Assembly: GCA_001510385.1 (NCBI GenBank)
Contig: LFFE01000007.1
Coordinates: forward strand, 124,001 to 188,000
Source of the DNA: Actinobacteria bacterium casp-actino5
GTDB taxonomy: Bacteria > Actinomycetota > Acidimicrobiia > Acidimicrobiales > Ilumatobacteraceae
Reading direction: 5' to 3'
DNA length: 64,000 nt
The translations under genes were made by a program, and so were the position numbers. Numbering within the stretch: position 1 is the first letter of the stretch; every line of letters begins with the position of its first letter. The notes below the pieces were generated by a model. It did no database searches and had not been told where the DNA came from. It saw only the letters and a program-made list of their open reading frames with translations. Below, piece after piece: positions 26,678-33,905 of this stretch.

Positions 26678-27292
26678 TCAGGCTGGGATCAGGTACACGA
26701 GGGTGAAGATGAGGATCCACACCACGTCGACAAAGTGCCAGTAGAGACCGAACAGTTCAACAACTTCCTTCTTGTCGCCAACAACTTTGTTCTTCGAGAT
26801 CATTCCAACGAGCGACATCAACATGATGATGCCGACGCTCACGTGAACACCGTGGAACCCAGTGAGCGTGAAGAAACTCGATGAAAAGAGGCTCGTCGTG
26901 AAGCCGAGACCCTCACGGTAAAAGGTGGTGAATTCGTACACCTGACCAGCAACAAACAGAGCGCCAAGCAGGGCGGTTACCGACAACCACAGTTTCGTAT
27001 TTCGATCATCATCACGATTCGCTGATGACACTGCCAACACCATGGTGAGCGACGACATCAGAAGCACAAAGCTTGAAGCAGAGGTGAATGGGATATCCCA
27101 TACCTGGTCTGGGCCAAGGTTTGCCGAGTGGCGACCTCGATACAGCATGTAGGTCGAGATAAGTCCACCGAAGAGCAAACACTCCGAGCCGAGGAACATC
27201 CACATTGCCAACTTGTTGTTTGACAACCCGGTTGACGTGTGGTGGGCACCGTGATCGACGTGATCGTCGGCGTGAACTGCAGTATCAGCCAT
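26678..27292 (-). CDS. ctaE: Cytochrome c oxidase subunit III
   Basis: 204 aa, five membrane helices. Conserved WMFLGSECLLFGGLISTYMLYR and the C-terminal FFTLTGFHGVHVSVGIIMLM, WHFVDVVWILIFTLVYLI. Start chosen at the ATG at 27292 (MADTAVHADDHVDHGAH); it overlaps the ctaD stop by eight bases. A longer open frame to 27406 would run inside ctaD and is not family-like. Part of the proton-pumping oxidase core. Confidence 0.95.
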   Translation of the reverse strand: MADTAVHADDHVDHGAHHTSTGLSNNKLAMWMFLGSECLLFGGLISTYMLYRGRHSANLGPDQVWDIPFTSASSFVLLMSSLTMVLAVSSANRDDDRNTKLWLSVTALLGALFVAGQVYEFTTFYREGLGFTTSLFSSSFFTLTGFHGVHVSVGIIMLMSLVGMISKNKVVGDKKEVVELFGLYWHFVDVVWILIFTLVYLIPA

Positions 27293-29291
27293 GAGATGCA
27301 ACCTCCATCGAAGTGCCAGTCGGCGGGTCGTAATCCTCTTCAGGGGCGGTATGCGGCTCAAGACCCCATCCGTAGAACGAGACCAGCGCAAGGACCGCTC
27401 CACCAAGAAGAAGGAACAAGTTGTAAATCACGCCATACGCCATGATCGGAAGGCTGAACGCCAACAAGATCGGCCAATATGAAGGTGATGGCAGGTGAAT
27501 ATGACCATCGGCATTTTTCTCTTCCTCGGCAAGAACTTCTTCGGCAGTTGCAACTTGGTGGAACTCATGATGGCCGTCAGCGCCACGATCCTCGTACTTG
27601 CGATGGAAGAACTCATCGAGGTGGCCAACCTGCGGCACGCGGTCGAAGTTGTGCTCTTTCGGTGGGTTGGTGGTGATCCACTCCAGGCTGCGGGCATCCC
27701 AAGGGTCAAGTGGTGCTTTCTCGGTTCCTTTGCGATGCGAAACATAAATGTTCACGAAGAACAACAAGACGCCAAGTGCAAGCACAAATGTGCCGATGGA
27801 CGCAACGAGGTTCCAGAAACCGATGTTGAAGAACCCCTCGCCTGCACGGTTCTCAGTCCACTGATACATACGTCGTGGCTGACCTTGCAAACCAATGATG
27901 TGCATCGGTCCGAACGTGAGGTTCATACCGATAATGGTGAGCCAGAAGTTGACCCGACCGAGACGCTCGTTGAGCATCTTGCCAAACATCTTGGGCCACC
28001 AGTAGTACATGCCCGCAAACAAGCCGAGTACTGCGCCACCAAAAATCACGTAGTGGAAGTGAGCAACGATGTAATACGTGTCAGTCTGTTGAGTATCAGA
28101 AGGTGCAACCGAGTGGGTGACGCCAGACAGACCGCCAATGGTGAACTGGATAATGACACCTACTGCATACAGCATTGGAACAGTGAATTTGATCTTTCCA
28201 CCCCACATCGTGAGGGTCCAGTTCACGATCTTCACACCGGTCGGAATGGCAATCGCCATGGTTGCCACGGAGAAAGCCGCAACAGAAATCGGACCAAGTC
28301 CGGAAGCGAACATGTGGTGAGCCCACACACCCCAGCCAACGAATCCGATCGCTGCGCCAGAGAAGACGATCAGCGGGTAACCAAATAGTGGCTTCTTCGA
28401 GAACACCGGGAGAATTTCTGACACGATGCCAAAGCTCGGAAGAACGAGGATGTACACCTCGGGGTGACCGAAGATCCAGAACAAGTGCTGCCACAACAGC
28501 GGGTCGGCACCAGCTTCCACGGTAAAGAATGTTGCATCGAAACTGCGCTGGAACATCAACATGAACAACGCCACGGTGATGACTGGCATAGCGAACAACA
28601 AGAGGAACTGCACCACCATCACCATCCAGGTGAAGATCGGCAACTTCATCAAACTCATACCCGGGGCCCTCATGTTGATCACCGTCACGATGAGGTTGAT
28701 GGCGCCGGTGAGAGAAGCAATACCAGTGATCTGCAGACCGAGACCCCAGAAGTCAACGCCGTTCGATGGAGAGAACGCAACCGATGAGTTCGGGGCGTAC
28801 ATAAACCAGCCGCCATCGGCTCCACCACCGAGGAACCATGAGGTGTTCAAGAAGAGGCCACCAAATAGGAACGCCCAAAAGCCAAACGCATTGATGCGCG
28901 GGAAAGCGACGTCGCGGGCACCGATCTGAAGCGGCACAAAGTAGTTTGCGAAAGCAGCCGCCATCGGCATCACGAACAAGAACACCATCGTGGTGGCATG
29001 CATCGTGAACATCTGGTTGTACTTGTCGGCCGACAACACTGTCCCATTCGGCCCAGCGAGTTGCAAACGGATGAGCATTGCTTCAATGCCACCGACCACG
29101 AAGAAAAACATGGCAACAACGCCATACATAATTCCGAGTTTCTTATGGTCGATCGTAAACAGCCACGACTTCCATCCGGTTGTTTCAACAGGACGACGGA
29201 AGACTCCGTACGACGACTCTGGAGTCGCCTCTGAAGGCGTCGATTGATCGACGACTTCTACTTCATCAGAGGGGCGTTCAATGATTGCCAT
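27285..29291 (-). CDS. ctaD: Cytochrome c oxidase subunit I (caa3 type) with C-terminal two-helix extension
   Basis: 668 aa, catalytic subunit reducing O2 to water. All six metal/heme His are present: H98 (MHATTM), H276 with E278 and Y280 (FGHPEVY), H325-H326 (WAHHMF), and H411 and H413 (VAHFHYVIF). Residues about 590-650 form an extra His/Glu-rich linker and two more helices (SPSYWPILLAF, LLLGGAVLALVSFYGWGLEP), resembling a fused small subunit IV-like segment. Seven bases after ctaC. A-type oxidase by HPEVY. Confidence 0.97.
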   Translation of the reverse strand: MAIIERPSDEVEVVDQSTPSEATPESSYGVFRRPVETTGWKSWLFTIDHKKLGIMYGVVAMFFFVVGGIEAMLIRLQLAGPNGTVLSADKYNQMFTMHATTMVFLFVMPMAAAFANYFVPLQIGARDVAFPRINAFGFWAFLFGGLFLNTSWFLGGGADGGWFMYAPNSSVAFSPSNGVDFWGLGLQITGIASLTGAINLIVTVINMRAPGMSLMKLPIFTWMVMVVQFLLLFAMPVITVALFMLMFQRSFDATFFTVEAGADPLLWQHLFWIFGHPEVYILVLPSFGIVSEILPVFSKKPLFGYPLIVFSGAAIGFVGWGVWAHHMFASGLGPISVAAFSVATMAIAIPTGVKIVNWTLTMWGGKIKFTVPMLYAVGVIIQFTIGGLSGVTHSVAPSDTQQTDTYYIVAHFHYVIFGGAVLGLFAGMYYWWPKMFGKMLNERLGRVNFWLTIIGMNLTFGPMHIIGLQGQPRRMYQWTENRAGEGFFNIGFWNLVASIGTFVLALGVLLFFVNIYVSHRKGTEKAPLDPWDARSLEWITTNPPKEHNFDRVPQVGHLDEFFHRKYEDRGADGHHEFHQVATAEEVLAEEEKNADGHIHLPSPSYWPILLAFSLPIMAYGVIYNLFLLLGGAVLALVSFYGWGLEPHTAPEEDYDPPTGTSMEVASHG

Positions 29292-29298
29292 CTGTTAC

Positions 29299-30597
29299 TC
29301 ACTTCCGCTCAAGGAGGTAGGCGATTAATTGATCGATTTGGTCTTCGCTCAGACCGAGATACGGCATTCCTCTAACCTTGCCGTCGGTCTGCTCCAGCGT
29401 TGCTGGATCGGCGTACATTGGCTTCTTCGCAGGAGCATTACGTAGCCATTCACGAAGGTCAATCTCGTTGAGGCAGTCCTGCGAGACTCCAGCCAAGTAC
29501 TTGTCACCGAATTCCTCGGGACTGGACTCCCACACGTCGGCGCGACATTCAGGGGTGAGAAGATCCCAGGTAGCACCTGCAAATGTGTTTCGAACCATGA
29601 GATTCGTCAAGTTTGGCGCTGCTCCGGAGTACACAAACTGGTCTGGGTATGACACAACGATGTTGCCGTTGTTCGGATCTAGGAGGCCGTTGACTTGGTG
29701 ACAACGCGAACACTGGGCAATAAAGGTTGTTTCACCTTCCGCCGCCAGGCTGCCCTCCTGAGGCGCTTGGTACGGCTCTAATTCATTATCAAGCCACTTC
29801 TGGAAATCTGCAGACTCGAGCACCACCGTCTCCATACGCATATTTGCGTGAGAGAGTCCACAGAACTCGGTGCATTGGCCGGCGTAAATACCGGGAGTAT
29901 CTGACTCAAGACGAAGGAAGTGGACTCGCCCAGGCACCATGTCGCGCTTGCCATTTAGGCGCGGGATCCAGTAACTGTGGATGACATCTCGGCTCGTACC
30001 GCGCAGTAGCACCTTCGTATTCGCCGGAATTACTAGCTGACCCGACGTGATAATTGGGCTTGCCTCAACGGCTGAAGGGGCATAACCGCAGATGGTGCCA
30101 TCTGCTCCGACTTCGTAGTCATATTCCCACCACCACTGCTGACCAGTCACGTTGATCACGCACTCTGTGTCATCGGTTGCATTGAGCGCCATCACAACGC
30201 CCACCGTTGGAATCGCAATCGCCGCAAGAATCACCGCTGGAATCGCAATGAAGAGATACTCGAGCCAGGCCTTGCCGTGAGCCTGCTCGGGAATCGGCTG
30301 GCCCTTATCGCGGTACTTCACCACGGTGACGGCAATGAAGGCCATCACAATGACGCCAACAACACCGGCAGTGAGGAACACCGGCCACTGCAGGTCTTGG
30401 ATCTTCTGTGCATTTGCACCGGCAGGCTTCCAGGTGTCCTGGGGAGCATCGGTTGCACACCCTGCAAGCAGGGCGGCCGCCGACAGACCGGCACCAGCAG
30501 TGGCTAGTTTGCGACCTCGCGAACTCATGTTCTCAAGAATAGGAGTCGAATCATTCGAAGTAGACATGGTGCGATCGTGAACCTTCAGGTGACTCAT
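29299..30597 (-). CDS. ctaC: Cytochrome c oxidase subunit II with C-terminal cytochrome c domain
   Basis: 432 aa. Lipoprotein-like signal (ALLAGC), two membrane helices, a CuA cupredoxin domain (VTGQQWWWEYDYE and the ligand loop GQCTEFCGLSHANM), then a heme c domain with QCSRCH at about residue 305 and an axial Met near the end (RGMPYLGLS). This makes the enzyme caa3-type. The ATG at 30597 is preferred because GAGGTGG lies seven bases upstream and it overlaps the previous stop by four bases. Later ATGs at 30567 and 30528 are alternatives that would trim the N-terminus before the lipobox. Confidence 0.95.
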   Translation of the reverse strand: MSHLKVHDRTMSTSNDSTPILENMSSRGRKLATAGAGLSAAALLAGCATDAPQDTWKPAGANAQKIQDLQWPVFLTAGVVGVIVMAFIAVTVVKYRDKGQPIPEQAHGKAWLEYLFIAIPAVILAAIAIPTVGVVMALNATDDTECVINVTGQQWWWEYDYEVGADGTICGYAPSAVEASPIITSGQLVIPANTKVLLRGTSRDVIHSYWIPRLNGKRDMVPGRVHFLRLESDTPGIYAGQCTEFCGLSHANMRMETVVLESADFQKWLDNELEPYQAPQEGSLAAEGETTFIAQCSRCHQVNGLLDPNNGNIVVSYPDQFVYSGAAPNLTNLMVRNTFAGATWDLLTPECRADVWESSPEEFGDKYLAGVSQDCLNEIDLREWLRNAPAKKPMYADPATLEQTDGKVRGMPYLGLSEDQIDQLIAYLLERK

Positions 30598-31721
30598 GGC
30601 ACAACCACCTCGATCCGCTCGTCGAGACCTGCGACTACGAAGGCGTAGCCACCTGACTCTTCGACAGCTGGATCGAAACTTGGTGCTGTGTAGTTAATGG
30701 TGAGAAGTTGAACTCCGCCCTCTTCAATGAGTGCAGTACAGAGACGAGCTGGAGAACCCTCAACATCCGCCAACTCGGCAATAAAGCGGCGTGGTTCAGC
30801 CGTTTCATTTCGGAACAAAATGTTGTTCGGGTTTGAACGAGGCAACTGAATCATTCCGCTCTTTGGGGTTTTGAGGCCAGGACGGATATACGACAAGCCG
30901 TTTTCGCTGAGTGTCACCTCGGCCGATGAGTTTGCCTTTCCTGCGACGGTCTGGCTTGCGTGCTCATCTGCCGAAATCTCCTCCTCACCGCACTTATCAA
31001 GTTCGGCGTAGTACGCCGTCGTGTGATGTTCCTTGATTTCACGCTCGCCATTTAGTCCGGCAACCGCTCCACCAGCAAGTAGAACCACACTGACAATCGA
31101 GAACAAACCAAACATCTTCGATGCACTGAGCGACCGTGCACGGCTAATCACAGCTCCACCGAAGAGCACGATTGTGGCAACGATTGAGAAGGCGACGATT
31201 GTTGACGACTTTGTCGGAGCTCCCAACATGACACGGCTGAACATGAAGACAATCAGCCCGAGCCCAATCGCTGCAGCAACTGGCATTTCCGCGGTATAGG
31301 CGAGACGACCACGCACCTCACGGTTGTGAGCGGCATCAGATGATGCGCCCTCAGCCCAGCCTTGGAGTAACCACTCTGCCGAGGCTGCAAGCACCACAAC
31401 AAGGCCGATCATGGTGAGTGCTGCGTGGATGACGACTCCTAGAGCAATCAGCACTCCGCCAACAGCAACTCCGATTGGCCAGACCGACGAGGCCGGACGC
31501 GGGGTTGCAGCAGCCGACCCTGAGAAACGTGTGACATCATCTGCGGCGACGTTCGCATCACGGATGAACGCGTTGATTCCTGCAAGGAAGATGAGTCCGG
31601 TGGTCAACGAAACCAACCCGACAGTACCCATGATGCCGCCGATAAGGACGCCATACAGCAGCGTTCCGATAAGGGAAGCTCCGCTTGCCCCGAAAAGAAG
31701 TTTTGAACCGGTGGTGAACAT
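30594..31721 (-). CDS. Unknown membrane protein in the oxidase operon, with exported C-terminal domain
   Basis: 375 aa from the ATG at 31721. About seven membrane helices in residues 1-230 (first FGASGASLIGTLLYGVLIGGIMG), then an extracytoplasmic domain of about 140 residues with a mostly beta pattern (IQLPRSNPNNILFRN, RRFIAEL, GGVQLLTINYTAPS, GYAFVVAGLDERIEVVV). The tail resembles a cupredoxin-like sandwich but lacks an obvious Cys/His/Met copper set; Cys occur in LDKCGEEE and ARLCTAL. It lies between the subunit III paralog and ctaC, overlapping the latter by four bases. No family recognised; a role in the oxidase complex is inferred from position only. Confidence 0.72.
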   Translation of the reverse strand: MFTTGSKLLFGASGASLIGTLLYGVLIGGIMGTVGLVSLTTGLIFLAGINAFIRDANVAADDVTRFSGSAAATPRPASSVWPIGVAVGGVLIALGVVIHAALTMIGLVVVLAASAEWLLQGWAEGASSDAAHNREVRGRLAYTAEMPVAAAIGLGLIVFMFSRVMLGAPTKSSTIVAFSIVATIVLFGGAVISRARSLSASKMFGLFSIVSVVLLAGGAVAGLNGEREIKEHHTTAYYAELDKCGEEEISADEHASQTVAGKANSSAEVTLSENGLSYIRPGLKTPKSGMIQLPRSNPNNILFRNETAEPRRFIAELADVEGSPARLCTALIEEGGVQLLTINYTAPSFDPAVEESGGYAFVVAGLDERIEVVVP

Positions 31722-31734
31722 CAGACTTCTGTCC

Positions 31735-32313
31735 TCACTTCGTGACGTAAACGACGAACCAAACTGCTGAGTAAGCCGCAGCAGCGAAGTACCAATACAA
31801 AGCGTGTGCCGAGACGATCTCGGATTGCCAATCTCGACCGCCAAGGGTTCTAAAGGCCGCAACAACGGTGAAGATGAGGCCGATGATGACGAGTGCCATC
31901 ATGGTGCCGGTGACAGCGTAAAACAATGCGCCGTATGCGCCCTCAGCGAGTTCGACCTCCATCTGGCTATACACGAATGCTTGGGCATTAATGAATGAAA
32001 GTGCCAGTATCGCAACGACCGAAAGGGCAAGTCCGGTATGGCCACGGTCTTGACGGCGAGCAGAGTACACCGCCCATTGAGCGAAGAAACACAGACCGAA
32101 GATGGTGATCAGCATCACGTTTGTCGCAACTTCGGGAATGATGTACTTCATCGGGAAGCGTTCACCAACGTCAACAACGTGCTGACGCTCCAGAAGCCAG
32201 ACGGCCAACATTCCACCGATCAAGGTGGTGCCAGCAAGACCAGCCAACGCTGAGCCAACGAGAAGTTGACGGCGCGGGGCGGGGGCCGGTCCAGATGGTA
32301 GAGCGAGCGTCAT
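31735..32313 (-). CDS. Subunit III-like protein (second heme-copper oxidase subunit III paralog)
   Basis: 192 aa, five membrane helices. Fits the COX3 fold: FPMKYIIPEVATNVMLITIFGLCFFAQWAVYSARRQDR, then SFINAQAFVYSQMEVELAEGAYGALFYAVTGTMM and the C-terminal SAHALYWYFAAAAYSAVWFVVYV, which parallels the ALYWHFVDVVW pattern of CtaE. It is more diverged than CtaE and overlaps the subunit I paralog upstream by four bases, so the two are probably made together. Confidence 0.8.
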   Translation of the reverse strand: MTLALPSGPAPAPRRQLLVGSALAGLAGTTLIGGMLAVWLLERQHVVDVGERFPMKYIIPEVATNVMLITIFGLCFFAQWAVYSARRQDRGHTGLALSVVAILALSFINAQAFVYSQMEVELAEGAYGALFYAVTGTMMALVIIGLIFTVVAAFRTLGGRDWQSEIVSAHALYWYFAAAAYSAVWFVVYVTK

Positions 32314-33905
32314 GAAGGGCTCCCTTCAGGGGTCTGATCGAGTTCGGGTTCTGACGAGCGAACAGTTGCAAGTGCTGCGTAATTGTCTGATGGCGCTGGG
32401 GACGAAGTCGACCACTCGATGGTGTGCGCACACCATGGATTTGATGTTCCGTCGGCCGTGCCGCCCCGAGTTGCTCCAGCGAACGCAAGAACAGTCAGCG
32501 CCATCAACGCGTAGCCGACAAGAGTCAACGTCGAAAAGAGTGACGCATCCGAATCTGCAAGGCCGGCAATGACCGCTGGGGCGCCCGCAAGAACGACACC
32601 AAGCGCACCGAGCAGCGCAAGTGGCAACACCTTTTTCTCGTCTCGCTTGAAACCAGAGAACTTCGGTGCCCAGAAGATAAGCCCGCCCATTGAGCCAACC
32701 GCAGCGGCAAGACACACGAGGGCAACCGAGCCTTCAACCGCTGTGGTTCCTGCAAGTTCAAGATCAACAACCTGAATGAGTACTCCGACTACTGCACCAA
32801 GAAGGAACAGCAAGGTGGCTAGCAAACCGAACAACATTGGGCTCAAAATCCTGGGCTTTGCCGAACTTGAGCCGTCAGGCTTGGCAACCAGTGGAGCAGT
32901 CAGCAACGTGATGACAATTCCCAGTAACGGAAGTCCAACAAAGAAGGCCATCACCACAAGCGATTTCACGACGTCTTGTCCCGAGGCGGAGAAGTCGACT
33001 GGGAAATCATTCTGCATGGTCACGCCAGAGAAGGCAGCGACCCCCACAAGTGCCGAACCTGCGAAGACAAGCTGGCGCATCGGATGGCGACGACTCACCG
33101 AAACCGGAAGAAGCTCAGCGAACACGCCCAACACTGGAATCGCATAGATGTACACCATCGGCGCAGAAAAGAACCGCGGCAGCCAATCAGCAAGAGCGTC
33201 TGAGTTGCCGAACACCAGTGCAGAATTCCGGTGGTCGACGAAGAGAAGGATCGTAAGACCGACCATTACCGGTGCCGTGACAACAAGTGAGATCGCCTGA
33301 ACAAGGGCGGTCCAGCTGAAGAACGGAACCCGCCGCATCGTGATACCAGGCGCACGAGATGTGAGAACAGTAGTTGCAACACTGATCGCAGCGGCAACGA
33401 CACCGAACATCATGAGAATCATCGCTGCGAGATAAAGGTCAACCATGTCGCCATCGGCTCCGCCGATACCGCCGCCATTGAGGATCGAAACCACAATCAG
33501 GACGGCGCCGGCGAGCCACATGTAGAAGCCGAGAAGCGTCAAGCGAGCAAATGCAATTGAACGCGCGCCAACCTGCATGGGAGTGACTGCGATGCTGAGG
33601 CCAAGAGTGAGAGGTAACGCGACCATCAGCACCAAACCAAACTGATGAAGTTGCGCCAACTGATTAAGTTGCTGACCGTTGAATGCGCCAAGATCCGCAA
33701 CAGCTTCGAGTGACCGAAGAATTGCAACAACCGAGACAGCAACCAACCCTAAAAGGCCAAAACCTGCGAAGAGGCGGCCAATCTTCTTGTGATCGGTTGA
33801 TGTTGCCCAATCTGCAATTGCAGCAACTGACGTGCCAATACGGCCGTCCGACAGCAGCGCCGAACCCGCACCCATTGCATTTCCCGATTGTTCCATCGTC
33901 GTCAT
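32310..33905 (-). CDS. Degenerate cytochrome oxidase subunit I paralog lacking most heme/copper ligands
   Basis: 531 aa, about twelve membrane helices. Homology to the neighbouring CtaD is clear: STDHKKIG versus TIDHKKLG, RAPGITMRRVPFFSW versus RAPGMSLMKLPIFTW, FWAPKFSGF versus WWPKMFG, and SNPWCAHTIEW versus LDPWDARSLEW. One heme His is kept (H87 in QLHQFG). The copper/heme a3 ligands are gone: FGHPEVY is FSAPMVY (H to A248, E to M250), WAHHMF is VTMQNDF (HH to Q298-N299), and VAHFHY is VEGSV (both His lost). It cannot have normal oxygen reductase chemistry. First gene of the operon; start among close ATGs at 33905 or 33896. Function unknown. Confidence 0.88.
   Translation of the reverse strand: MTTMEQSGNAMGAGSALLSDGRIGTSVAAIADWATSTDHKKIGRLFAGFGLLGLVAVSVVAILRSLEAVADLGAFNGQQLNQLAQLHQFGLVLMVALPLTLGLSIAVTPMQVGARSIAFARLTLLGFYMWLAGAVLIVVSILNGGGIGGADGDMVDLYLAAMILMMFGVVAAAISVATTVLTSRAPGITMRRVPFFSWTALVQAISLVVTAPVMVGLTILLFVDHRNSALVFGNSDALADWLPRFFSAPMVYIYAIPVLGVFAELLPVSVSRRHPMRQLVFAGSALVGVAAFSGVTMQNDFPVDFSASGQDVVKSLVVMAFFVGLPLLGIVITLLTAPLVAKPDGSSSAKPRILSPMLFGLLATLLFLLGAVVGVLIQVVDLELAGTTAVEGSVALVCLAAAVGSMGGLIFWAPKFSGFKRDEKKVLPLALLGALGVVLAGAPAVIAGLADSDASLFSTLTLVGYALMALTVLAFAGATRGGTADGTSNPWCAHTIEWSTSSPAPSDNYAALATVRSSEPELDQTPEGSPS

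What the first reader, a model, noticed from the sequence alone, without database searches (positions are those of the whole stretch)
32310..33905. Catalytically stripped cytochrome oxidase subunit I paralog
The 531-aa protein aligns along its length with the neighbouring CtaD, yet by direct comparison keeps only one of six ligand His: H87 stays. HPEVY has become APMVY, the HH pair is QN (298-299), and HFH is replaced by GSV. Full length, membrane helices and conserved loops argue against a decaying pseudogene. It may be a structural, regulatory or single-heme subunit of a larger complex.
Basis: partly seen in the sequence, partly recalled or inferred. Interest (0 to 1): 0.82.

Follow-up and report, generated by a model that had tools for sequence, protein, structure and literature searches.

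The report
Metal-free oxidase module beside active oxidase
In a group of environmental actinobacteria, the genes of the working oxygen-consuming enzyme are regularly preceded by a full-length look-alike that has lost nearly all its heme- and copper-binding residues yet is still conserved, so a respiratory enzyme core seems to have been kept as a scaffold or helper rather than as a catalyst.

Summary
The 531-aa protein (I*) has a complete COX1 fold (AlphaFold pLDDT 91.8; PDB Z 38.5) but lacks five of six ligand His, the gate Glu and the D- and K-channel residues. It is not alone: next come a COX3 remnant (III*) and a CtaF-like protein with a cupredoxin fold (IV*). In 91 of 91 loci holding both I* and a caa3-type ctaD, these genes precede ctaC-ctaD in one order. 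None of 101 distinct I* has the CuB triad; 72 keep no ligand His. Five near-root I* keep the three heme His, and they alone of 97 tested loci have an intact type-1 copper motif on IV*: hemes and blue copper seem to have been lost together. dN/dS is 0.03-0.23 in 20 pairs. I* has one origin, apparently outside the neighbouring CtaD clade. A single-heme role of His87 is unlikely. I infer a cofactor-free structural partner of caa3; physical association is untested. In passing: a second His-less, cbb3-like family in the phylum. Ten paper searches showed no description.

The parts
32310..33905 (-). I*: COX1-fold protein, 531 aa, without CuB triad and heme a3 ligand; only His87 of the six ligand His kept
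   Evidence: PF00115 116.2 bits; ligand tables; AF2 pLDDT 91.8 and PDB Z 38.5
31735..32313 (-). III*: degenerate COX3, 192 aa; start overlaps the I* stop by 4 nt
   Evidence: PF00510 35.6 bits over cut-off 23.8; NF050119 34.8 bits, under its cut-off
30594..31721 (-). IV*: CtaF-like N-half, further TM helices, C-terminal cupredoxin fold without type-1 Cu ligands; the ORF is open from TTG 31865, likely start ATG 31721
   Evidence: alignment, sequence, AF2 and cupredoxin matches Z up to 9.6; PF12270 only weak, 13.3 bits
29299..30597 (-). ctaC: subunit II with fused cytochrome c; start overlaps the IV* stop by 4 nt
   Evidence: COX2, COX2_TM, Cytochrom_C; TIGR02866 178.6 over cut-off 147.7
27285..29291 (-). 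ctaD: subunit I with 6 of 6 ligand His
   Evidence: PF00115 517 bits; TIGR02891 688.1 over cut-off 670.75
26678..27406 (-). ctaE: subunit III (ORF as listed; its true start may lie further in)
   Evidence: PF00510 66 bits
26332..26661 (-). small subunit IV (COX4_pro)
   Evidence: PF03626 46 bits
25387..26325 (-). ctaG: caa3 assembly factor
   Evidence: PF09678 136 bits
34037..35038 (-). ctaB: UbiA-family heme o synthase, directly upstream of I*
   Evidence: PF01040 213.8 bits; name by synteny and recall

Best explanation
SHOWN: I*-III*-IV* is the protein core of a second oxidase-like complex. Its near-root relatives keep the ligands of two hemes and of a blue copper but no CuB triad; the window's lineage has lost these sites (one isolated His remains), while the sequences stayed under purifying selection in one operon with an active-looking caa3 oxidase. 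INFERRED: the three proteins assemble like subunits I, III and IV of an oxidase and dock on CtaC-D-E as a non-catalytic partner, stabilising the caa3 enzyme or its contact with complex III, much as inactive paralogs support active twins in other heteromers. The near-root module could have carried electrons to caa3; in the window only the scaffold role remains.
For: Same gene order in 91 of 91 loci holding both I* and caa3-type ctaD, I*-ctaD gap 2.6-3.4 kb. In ten order genomes whose every matched COX1 locus I read, I* and the caa3 operon are absent together. dN/dS of I* 0.03-0.23 in 20 pairs; ctaC 0.03-0.18, ctaB 0.01-0.21, ctaD 0.015-0.14. Full COX1 fold. 74 positions are at least 80% conserved, 43 of them (my count) in five motif stretches (38-44, 108-123, 178-198, 412-418, 490-523), including a tail (S517, P520, D523) that the window CtaD does not share. 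At the three CuB positions Gln is the commonest residue (63, 76, 36 of 101) against 2.1% Gln overall. All three heme His and the type-1 Cu motif occur together in 5 of 5 loci; 92 of 92 others have neither set complete. One origin, 100/100.
Against: No direct evidence of contact with caa3; shared neighbourhood and joint absence could reflect co-regulation or loss as one block. Caa3 oxidases of other orders do without I* (five loci with at least 4.9 kb upstream of ctaD). dN of I* is a median of about 2.4 times that of CtaD (range 0.6-8.6 in 19 pairs, worked out), whereas a tight interface might be slower. Only monomer models were made.
Confidence: 0.5

Rival explanations
1. Assembly factor: I*-III*-IV* is a transient template or chaperone on which CtaD/CtaE fold or receive heme and copper, and is not part of the mature enzyme.
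For: It sits between ctaB and ctaC, with ctaG downstream; near-root loci carry a thioredoxin-like gene between IV* and ctaC (Pfam in L069 only).
Against: Most forms have lost the metal sites a metallochaperone would need; besides His39 of the TDHK motif no His or Cys column exceeds 60%. A whole I-III-IV core is an unusual size for a chaperone (judgement, no call).
Confidence: 0.17
2. Independent membrane complex: the module has its own non-redox task (for example ion conduction, or lipid or cofactor handling) and is only co-regulated with caa3.
For: It mostly evolves faster than CtaD and has its own conserved C-tail.
Against: No order locus with a caa3-type ctaD and more than 4.3 kb upstream lacks it, and the order is the same in 91 of 91; D- and K-channel residues are gone.
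Confidence: 0.13
3. Regulatory decoy: I* competes with CtaD for CtaC/CtaE or cofactors and sets the amount of active oxidase.
For: Motifs of subunit I that by recalled topology face the cytoplasm are preserved.
Against: It has its own III* and IV* partners, present in 91 of 91 loci that hold both I* and ctaD.
Confidence: 0.09
4. Still redox-active in the window: a single heme bound through His87 or through ligands that the alignment misses.
For: The helix-II His is the ligand kept most often (26 of 101) and is kept across the genus; near-root relatives keep three heme His; a His at position 225 occurs in 60%.
Against: Helix-X His gone; the His87 position is Y, F or L in 7 of 8 other readable genera of the family; no other His or Cys above 60% except His39.
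Confidence: 0.07
5. Decaying pseudogene or assembly artefact.
For: Ligand loss alone.
Against: One open frame, dN/dS far below 1 in 20 of 20 pairs, 101 distinct proteins of at least 400 aa.
Confidence: 0.02

Closest known systems
A-family heme-copper oxidase subunit I (CtaD/COX1; actinobacterial aa3, bo3)
   Same: Full-length fold, Z 38.5 to E. coli bo3 and 38.2 to M. smegmatis aa3; motifs TDHK, RAPG, IEW
   Different: No CuB triad, no heme a3 ligand, one of two heme a ligands in the window, no D- or K-channel residues; far below the NCBIfam equivalog cut-offs
COX3/CtaE and actinobacterial CtaF (PF12270)
   Same: III* passes the PF00510 cut-off; the IV* N-half resembles CtaF weakly (20.6 bits in L129, below cut-off)
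   Different: Paralogs lying upstream of an intact ctaC-D-E set
3TM-plus-cupredoxin proteins near actinobacterial ctaD
   Same: Near-root IV* of L069 finds matches in 74 of 296 phylum genomes, a count that includes the order's own IV*; outside the order they match its C-half
   Different: In the window the type-1 Cu ligands are gone
Catalytically dead activating paralogs (prozyme, PMC5201418; trypanosomatid DHS, PMC3663545; only listing and abstract starts seen)
   Same: An inactive paralog kept beside an active enzyme
   Different: There activation was shown by experiment; here it is only inferred, and a three-gene membrane core is involved

Membership tests
Heme-copper oxygen reductase subunit I (A-type) | COX1 sequence family and fold | tested here: met
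   PF00115 116.2 bits over cut-off 34.8; Z 38.5, rmsd 2.8, 484 aligned
Heme-copper oxygen reductase subunit I (A-type) | CuB triad of three His | tested here: not met
   0 of 3 in the window; 0 of 101 distinct I* have the triad, three have one His of it
Heme-copper oxygen reductase subunit I (A-type) | Heme a3 proximal His and bis-His heme a | tested here: not met
   Only helix-II His87 kept
Heme-copper oxygen reductase subunit I (A-type) | D-channel Asp, gate Glu, K-channel Lys | tested here: not met
   S, M and T in the window
cytochrome c oxidase subunit I equivalog (TIGR02891) | Score over curated cut-off | tested here: not met
   149.3 against 670.75 bits
COX3 (PF00510), for III* | Score over curated cut-off | tested here: met
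   35.6 against 23.8 bits
Type-1 copper cupredoxin, for IV* | Cupredoxin fold | tested here: met
   About residues 311-423, Z up to 9.6; fold only
Type-1 copper cupredoxin, for IV* | His-Cys-His-Met ligands | tested here: not met
   Absent in the window; motif found in 5 of 97 loci, all near-root, and in L071, whose I* is off the contig
Actinobacterial CtaF (PF12270), for IV* | Score over curated cut-off | tested here: not met
   13.3 bits in the window, 20.6 in L129, cut-off 26.9
Inactive-paralog partner (pseudoenzyme) | Catalytic residues lost while under purifying selection | tested here: met
Inactive-paralog partner (pseudoenzyme) | Physical and functional association with the active enzyme | not testable with these tools
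   Only synteny and joint absence

The most novel reading that the evidence does not exclude
A whole respiratory enzyme core (subunits I, III and IV with a cupredoxin) was stripped of its metals across one bacterial order and kept as a permanent, non-catalytic half of an asymmetric caa3 complex; together with the independent His-less cbb3-like family found near complex III genes, this would make 'dead oxidase as membrane scaffold' a recurrent principle in actinobacterial respiration.
Probability: 0.35. Interest if true: 0.88.

Novelty: new variant of a known kind. Interest (0 to 1): 0.74.

Why it matters
Subunit I of heme-copper oxidases is usually thought of through its metals (recalled, no call). 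A series from functional enzyme, through a form that keeps two heme sites and a blue copper but no CuB, to a form without complete metal sites shows which parts of the fold are kept without catalysis, and offers a natural test of what subunit I does besides catalysis. It also warns that counting COX1 genes overstates the number of working oxidases in these bacteria.

Tried and rejected
Recent duplication of the neighbouring ctaD: not supported, I* lies outside the caa3 clade in the 71-row tree (this is the quick tree, as the careful search did not finish; support of the I* branch 89; I* branches are long and one non-I* row is very long). Single-heme role through His87: unlikely. Pseudogene: rejected. 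I* in other orders of the class: not found where I looked. The class search (149 genomes, match list cut by the tool) mixes I* and CtaD; I read loci of 11 of its other-order genomes (L152-L156, L186-L191), and every A-type COX1 there had six His. L186 also holds a different, cbb3-like His-less protein. The rows listed for the IV* model are cupredoxins, laccases and other copper proteins or COX2-type chains, and the VIA-align rows rest mainly on residues 308-423, so its membrane half is barely tested; that is no evidence of a new fold.

Limits of the counts: I* was recognised as a COX1-like ORF of at least 400 aa without GHPE(V/I)Y; L136 and L150, picked up by that rule, were dropped because they have all six His. 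Truncated I* (for example L048, L051, L052, L111) are not in the census. Loci of the named and unnamed collections overlap; identical proteins were counted once (109 loci, 100 distinct, plus the window). In one search some ligand strings were misread as gaps by the quick alignment, and its output was cut; the L-INS-i census replaces it. Of family f20, both COX1 loci were read in G084, G092 and G135, one of two in G100 and G129, none in G104, G132, G143, G148, G151, G158 and G175. G172 and the 72% complete G008 gave no match. NG86 dN/dS is rough; the window pairs have saturated dS, and some III* values rest on over-extended ORF starts (up to 0.36).

Literature: ten searches (listings only) and passages of PMC8239418 and PMC9145763 showed no description of a ligand-less COX1 module; subscription journals are mostly not held.

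Full report
1. The observation. The protein is encoded at 32310-33905 on the minus strand. It matches Pfam COX1 with E 2.2e-33 and aligns to the window's CtaD at 25% identity over 530 columns. Of the six ligand His only His87 (helix II) remains. The D-channel Asp, gate Glu and K-channel Lys are gone too. The own genome (90.8% complete) has two COX1 matches, this gene and ctaD.

2. It is a three-gene module. The next gene (31735-32313) is a COX3 relative above the Pfam cut-off, weaker than the true ctaE (35.6 against 66 bits). The one after it (30594-31721) has an N-half that resembles CtaF (weakly, below the Pfam cut-off), more helices and a C-terminal domain that folds as a cupredoxin. I call them I*, III* and IV*. 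I*/III* and IV*/ctaC overlap by 4 nt, and 13 nt separate III* from the likely IV* start. Then come ctaC with its cytochrome c domain, ctaD with all ligands, ctaE, a COX4_pro gene and ctaG. The genome also has a CtaA match and, on another contig, a complex III with split cytochrome b (only the cytochrome b N-half rests on a family model, its neighbours on reading).

3. Distribution. 40 of 41 genomes (own included) have a match to I*, a search that does not by itself separate I* from CtaD. The detailed set is 79 named loci and 80 fetched regions. In these 159, 109 loci hold an I* of at least 400 aa and 104 a caa3-type ctaD; 91 hold both, always on one strand and always in the order (ctaB)-I*-III*-IV*-ctaC-ctaD (87 complete with ctaB and ctaE, 3 without ctaE, 1 without ctaB). 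Seven order loci have a caa3-type ctaD without a complete I*; in all seven the sequence held upstream of ctaD is short (1.2-4.2 kb). The nearest named relative (L110, I* 89% identical) is titled Ilumatobacteraceae; others are Desertimonas flava (L075) and Ca. Microthrix MAGs (L129, L139), so the order is Acidimicrobiales or its GTDB equivalent (inference from titles; a few titles name other taxa). Ten order genomes of which I read every matched COX1 locus (G027, G031, G038, G053, G084, G092, G096, G135, G154, G179) have neither I* nor the caa3 operon; their COX1 are other, fully liganded types. In other orders of the class, six caa3 loci lack I*, five of them with at least 4.9 kb upstream of ctaD.

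4. Origin and stepwise loss. In a tree of 27 I* and 33 functional COX1, I* is one side of a 100/100 branch. In a 71-row quick tree with other COX1 types, I* does not fall within the caa3 clade (support 89), so it does not look like a recent tandem copy; long branches make its exact place unsure. Among 101 distinct I* none has the CuB triad (three have one His of it); 72 keep 0 of 6 ligand His, 20 keep one, 4 two and 5 three. The five (L055, L062, L063, L066, L069) keep exactly the helix-II His and the two helix-X His, that is the ligands of both hemes, and branch nearest to functional COX1. Those five also have an intact type-1 Cu motif on IV*; none of the 92 other loci with an IV* ORF has it (3 of 100 had no IV* ORF). 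L071, whose I* lies off the contig, has the copper site too. In several intermediate families the cupredoxin domain is missing altogether; in the window's family it is present without ligands. L067, sister to four of the five, lost its heme a3 His and its cupredoxin domain, which suggests a second, parallel loss of both, though its branch is long. The likely history: CuB lost first, then hemes and blue copper. Few lineages stand behind this correlation, so 5-of-5 against 0-of-92 is not 97 independent events.

5. Selection. NG86 dN/dS for I* is 0.03-0.23 in 20 of 20 close pairs, against 0.015-0.14 for ctaD (19 pairs), 0.03-0.18 for ctaC and 0.01-0.21 for ctaB. 74 positions are at least 80% conserved; 43 of them lie in five motif stretches that, by recalled COX1 topology, face the cytoplasm, and a tail (S517, P520, D523) is conserved in I* but not shared with the window CtaD. 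The three CuB positions hold Gln in 63, 76 and 36 of 101 I*, although Gln makes up only 2.1% of residues. Apart from His39 of the TDHK motif no His or Cys column exceeds 60% (His225), so no replacement metal site is apparent. Against a simple picture, the helix-II His is still present in 26 of 101.

6. Structure. The I* model has pLDDT 91.8 and pTM 0.92; its best matches are E. coli bo3 (Z 38.5, rmsd 2.8, 484 aligned) and M. smegmatis aa3 (Z 38.2, rmsd 2.7, 482 aligned). The IV* model has pLDDT 80.6 with a confident C-terminal beta domain whose best matches are cupredoxin domains (Z up to 9.6); Foldseek ranks the COX2 chain of a caa3 oxidase (2yev_B) first, at low TM-score.

7. Interpretation. 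Shown: a conserved oxidase core without complete metal sites, tied to an active-looking caa3 operon. Inferred: it is a structural partner or docking platform of caa3. Assembly factor, independent complex and decoy are the main rivals. No tool here tests physical association.

8. A parallel seen in passing. One caa3 locus of another order (L186) has upstream of ctaC a cbb3-like subunit I without any ligand His, fused to a cupredoxin with intact type-1 Cu motif. Of 27 proteins aligned (this one and 26 relatives chosen among the best COX1-part matches), 23 have none of the six His and 4 have all six. In L293 and L297 the His-less protein is fused to a FixO-like cytochrome c; in L295 it sits beside FixO-like and cytochrome c genes, divergent to a cytochrome b operon. 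The window's genome gave no match to this protein at E 1e-10.

Noticed in passing
L186:9090-11219 (-), and relatives such as L293:5364-7361, L295:6253-7692, L297:6603-8570: A second, independent His-less heme-copper subunit I family of cbb3 (CcoN) type: 23 of 27 aligned proteins have 0 of 6 ligand His; L293 and L297 are fused to FixO-like cytochrome c, L295 lies beside a cytochrome b operon, L186 is fused to an intact cupredoxin upstream of ctaC.
   Followed up: partly
L062, L063, L067, L069, between IV* and ctaC: Near-root operons carry a thioredoxin/AhpC-TSA-like (TlpA/ResA-like) gene there, absent in the window (confirmed by Pfam in L069 only).
   Followed up: no
Phylum genomes, for example G200:C2, G222:C628, G232:C5: The 3TM-plus-cupredoxin half of near-root IV* matches proteins about 2 kb from functional-type ctaD in other actinobacterial families (positions).
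   Followed up: no
I* columns of the former CuB site, 101 distinct proteins: Gln is the commonest replacement at the three CuB positions (63, 76, 36 of 101), far over the 2.1% Gln background.
   Followed up: partly
window 30594-31721, C-terminal domain of IV*: In the window's family two Cys (near CGEE and CT motifs) recur in most rows of the copper-less cupredoxin-like domain, perhaps a disulfide in place of copper.
   Followed up: no
G172 (same family, 96% complete): No COX1-like match at all in two searches, unlike its relatives.
   Followed up: no
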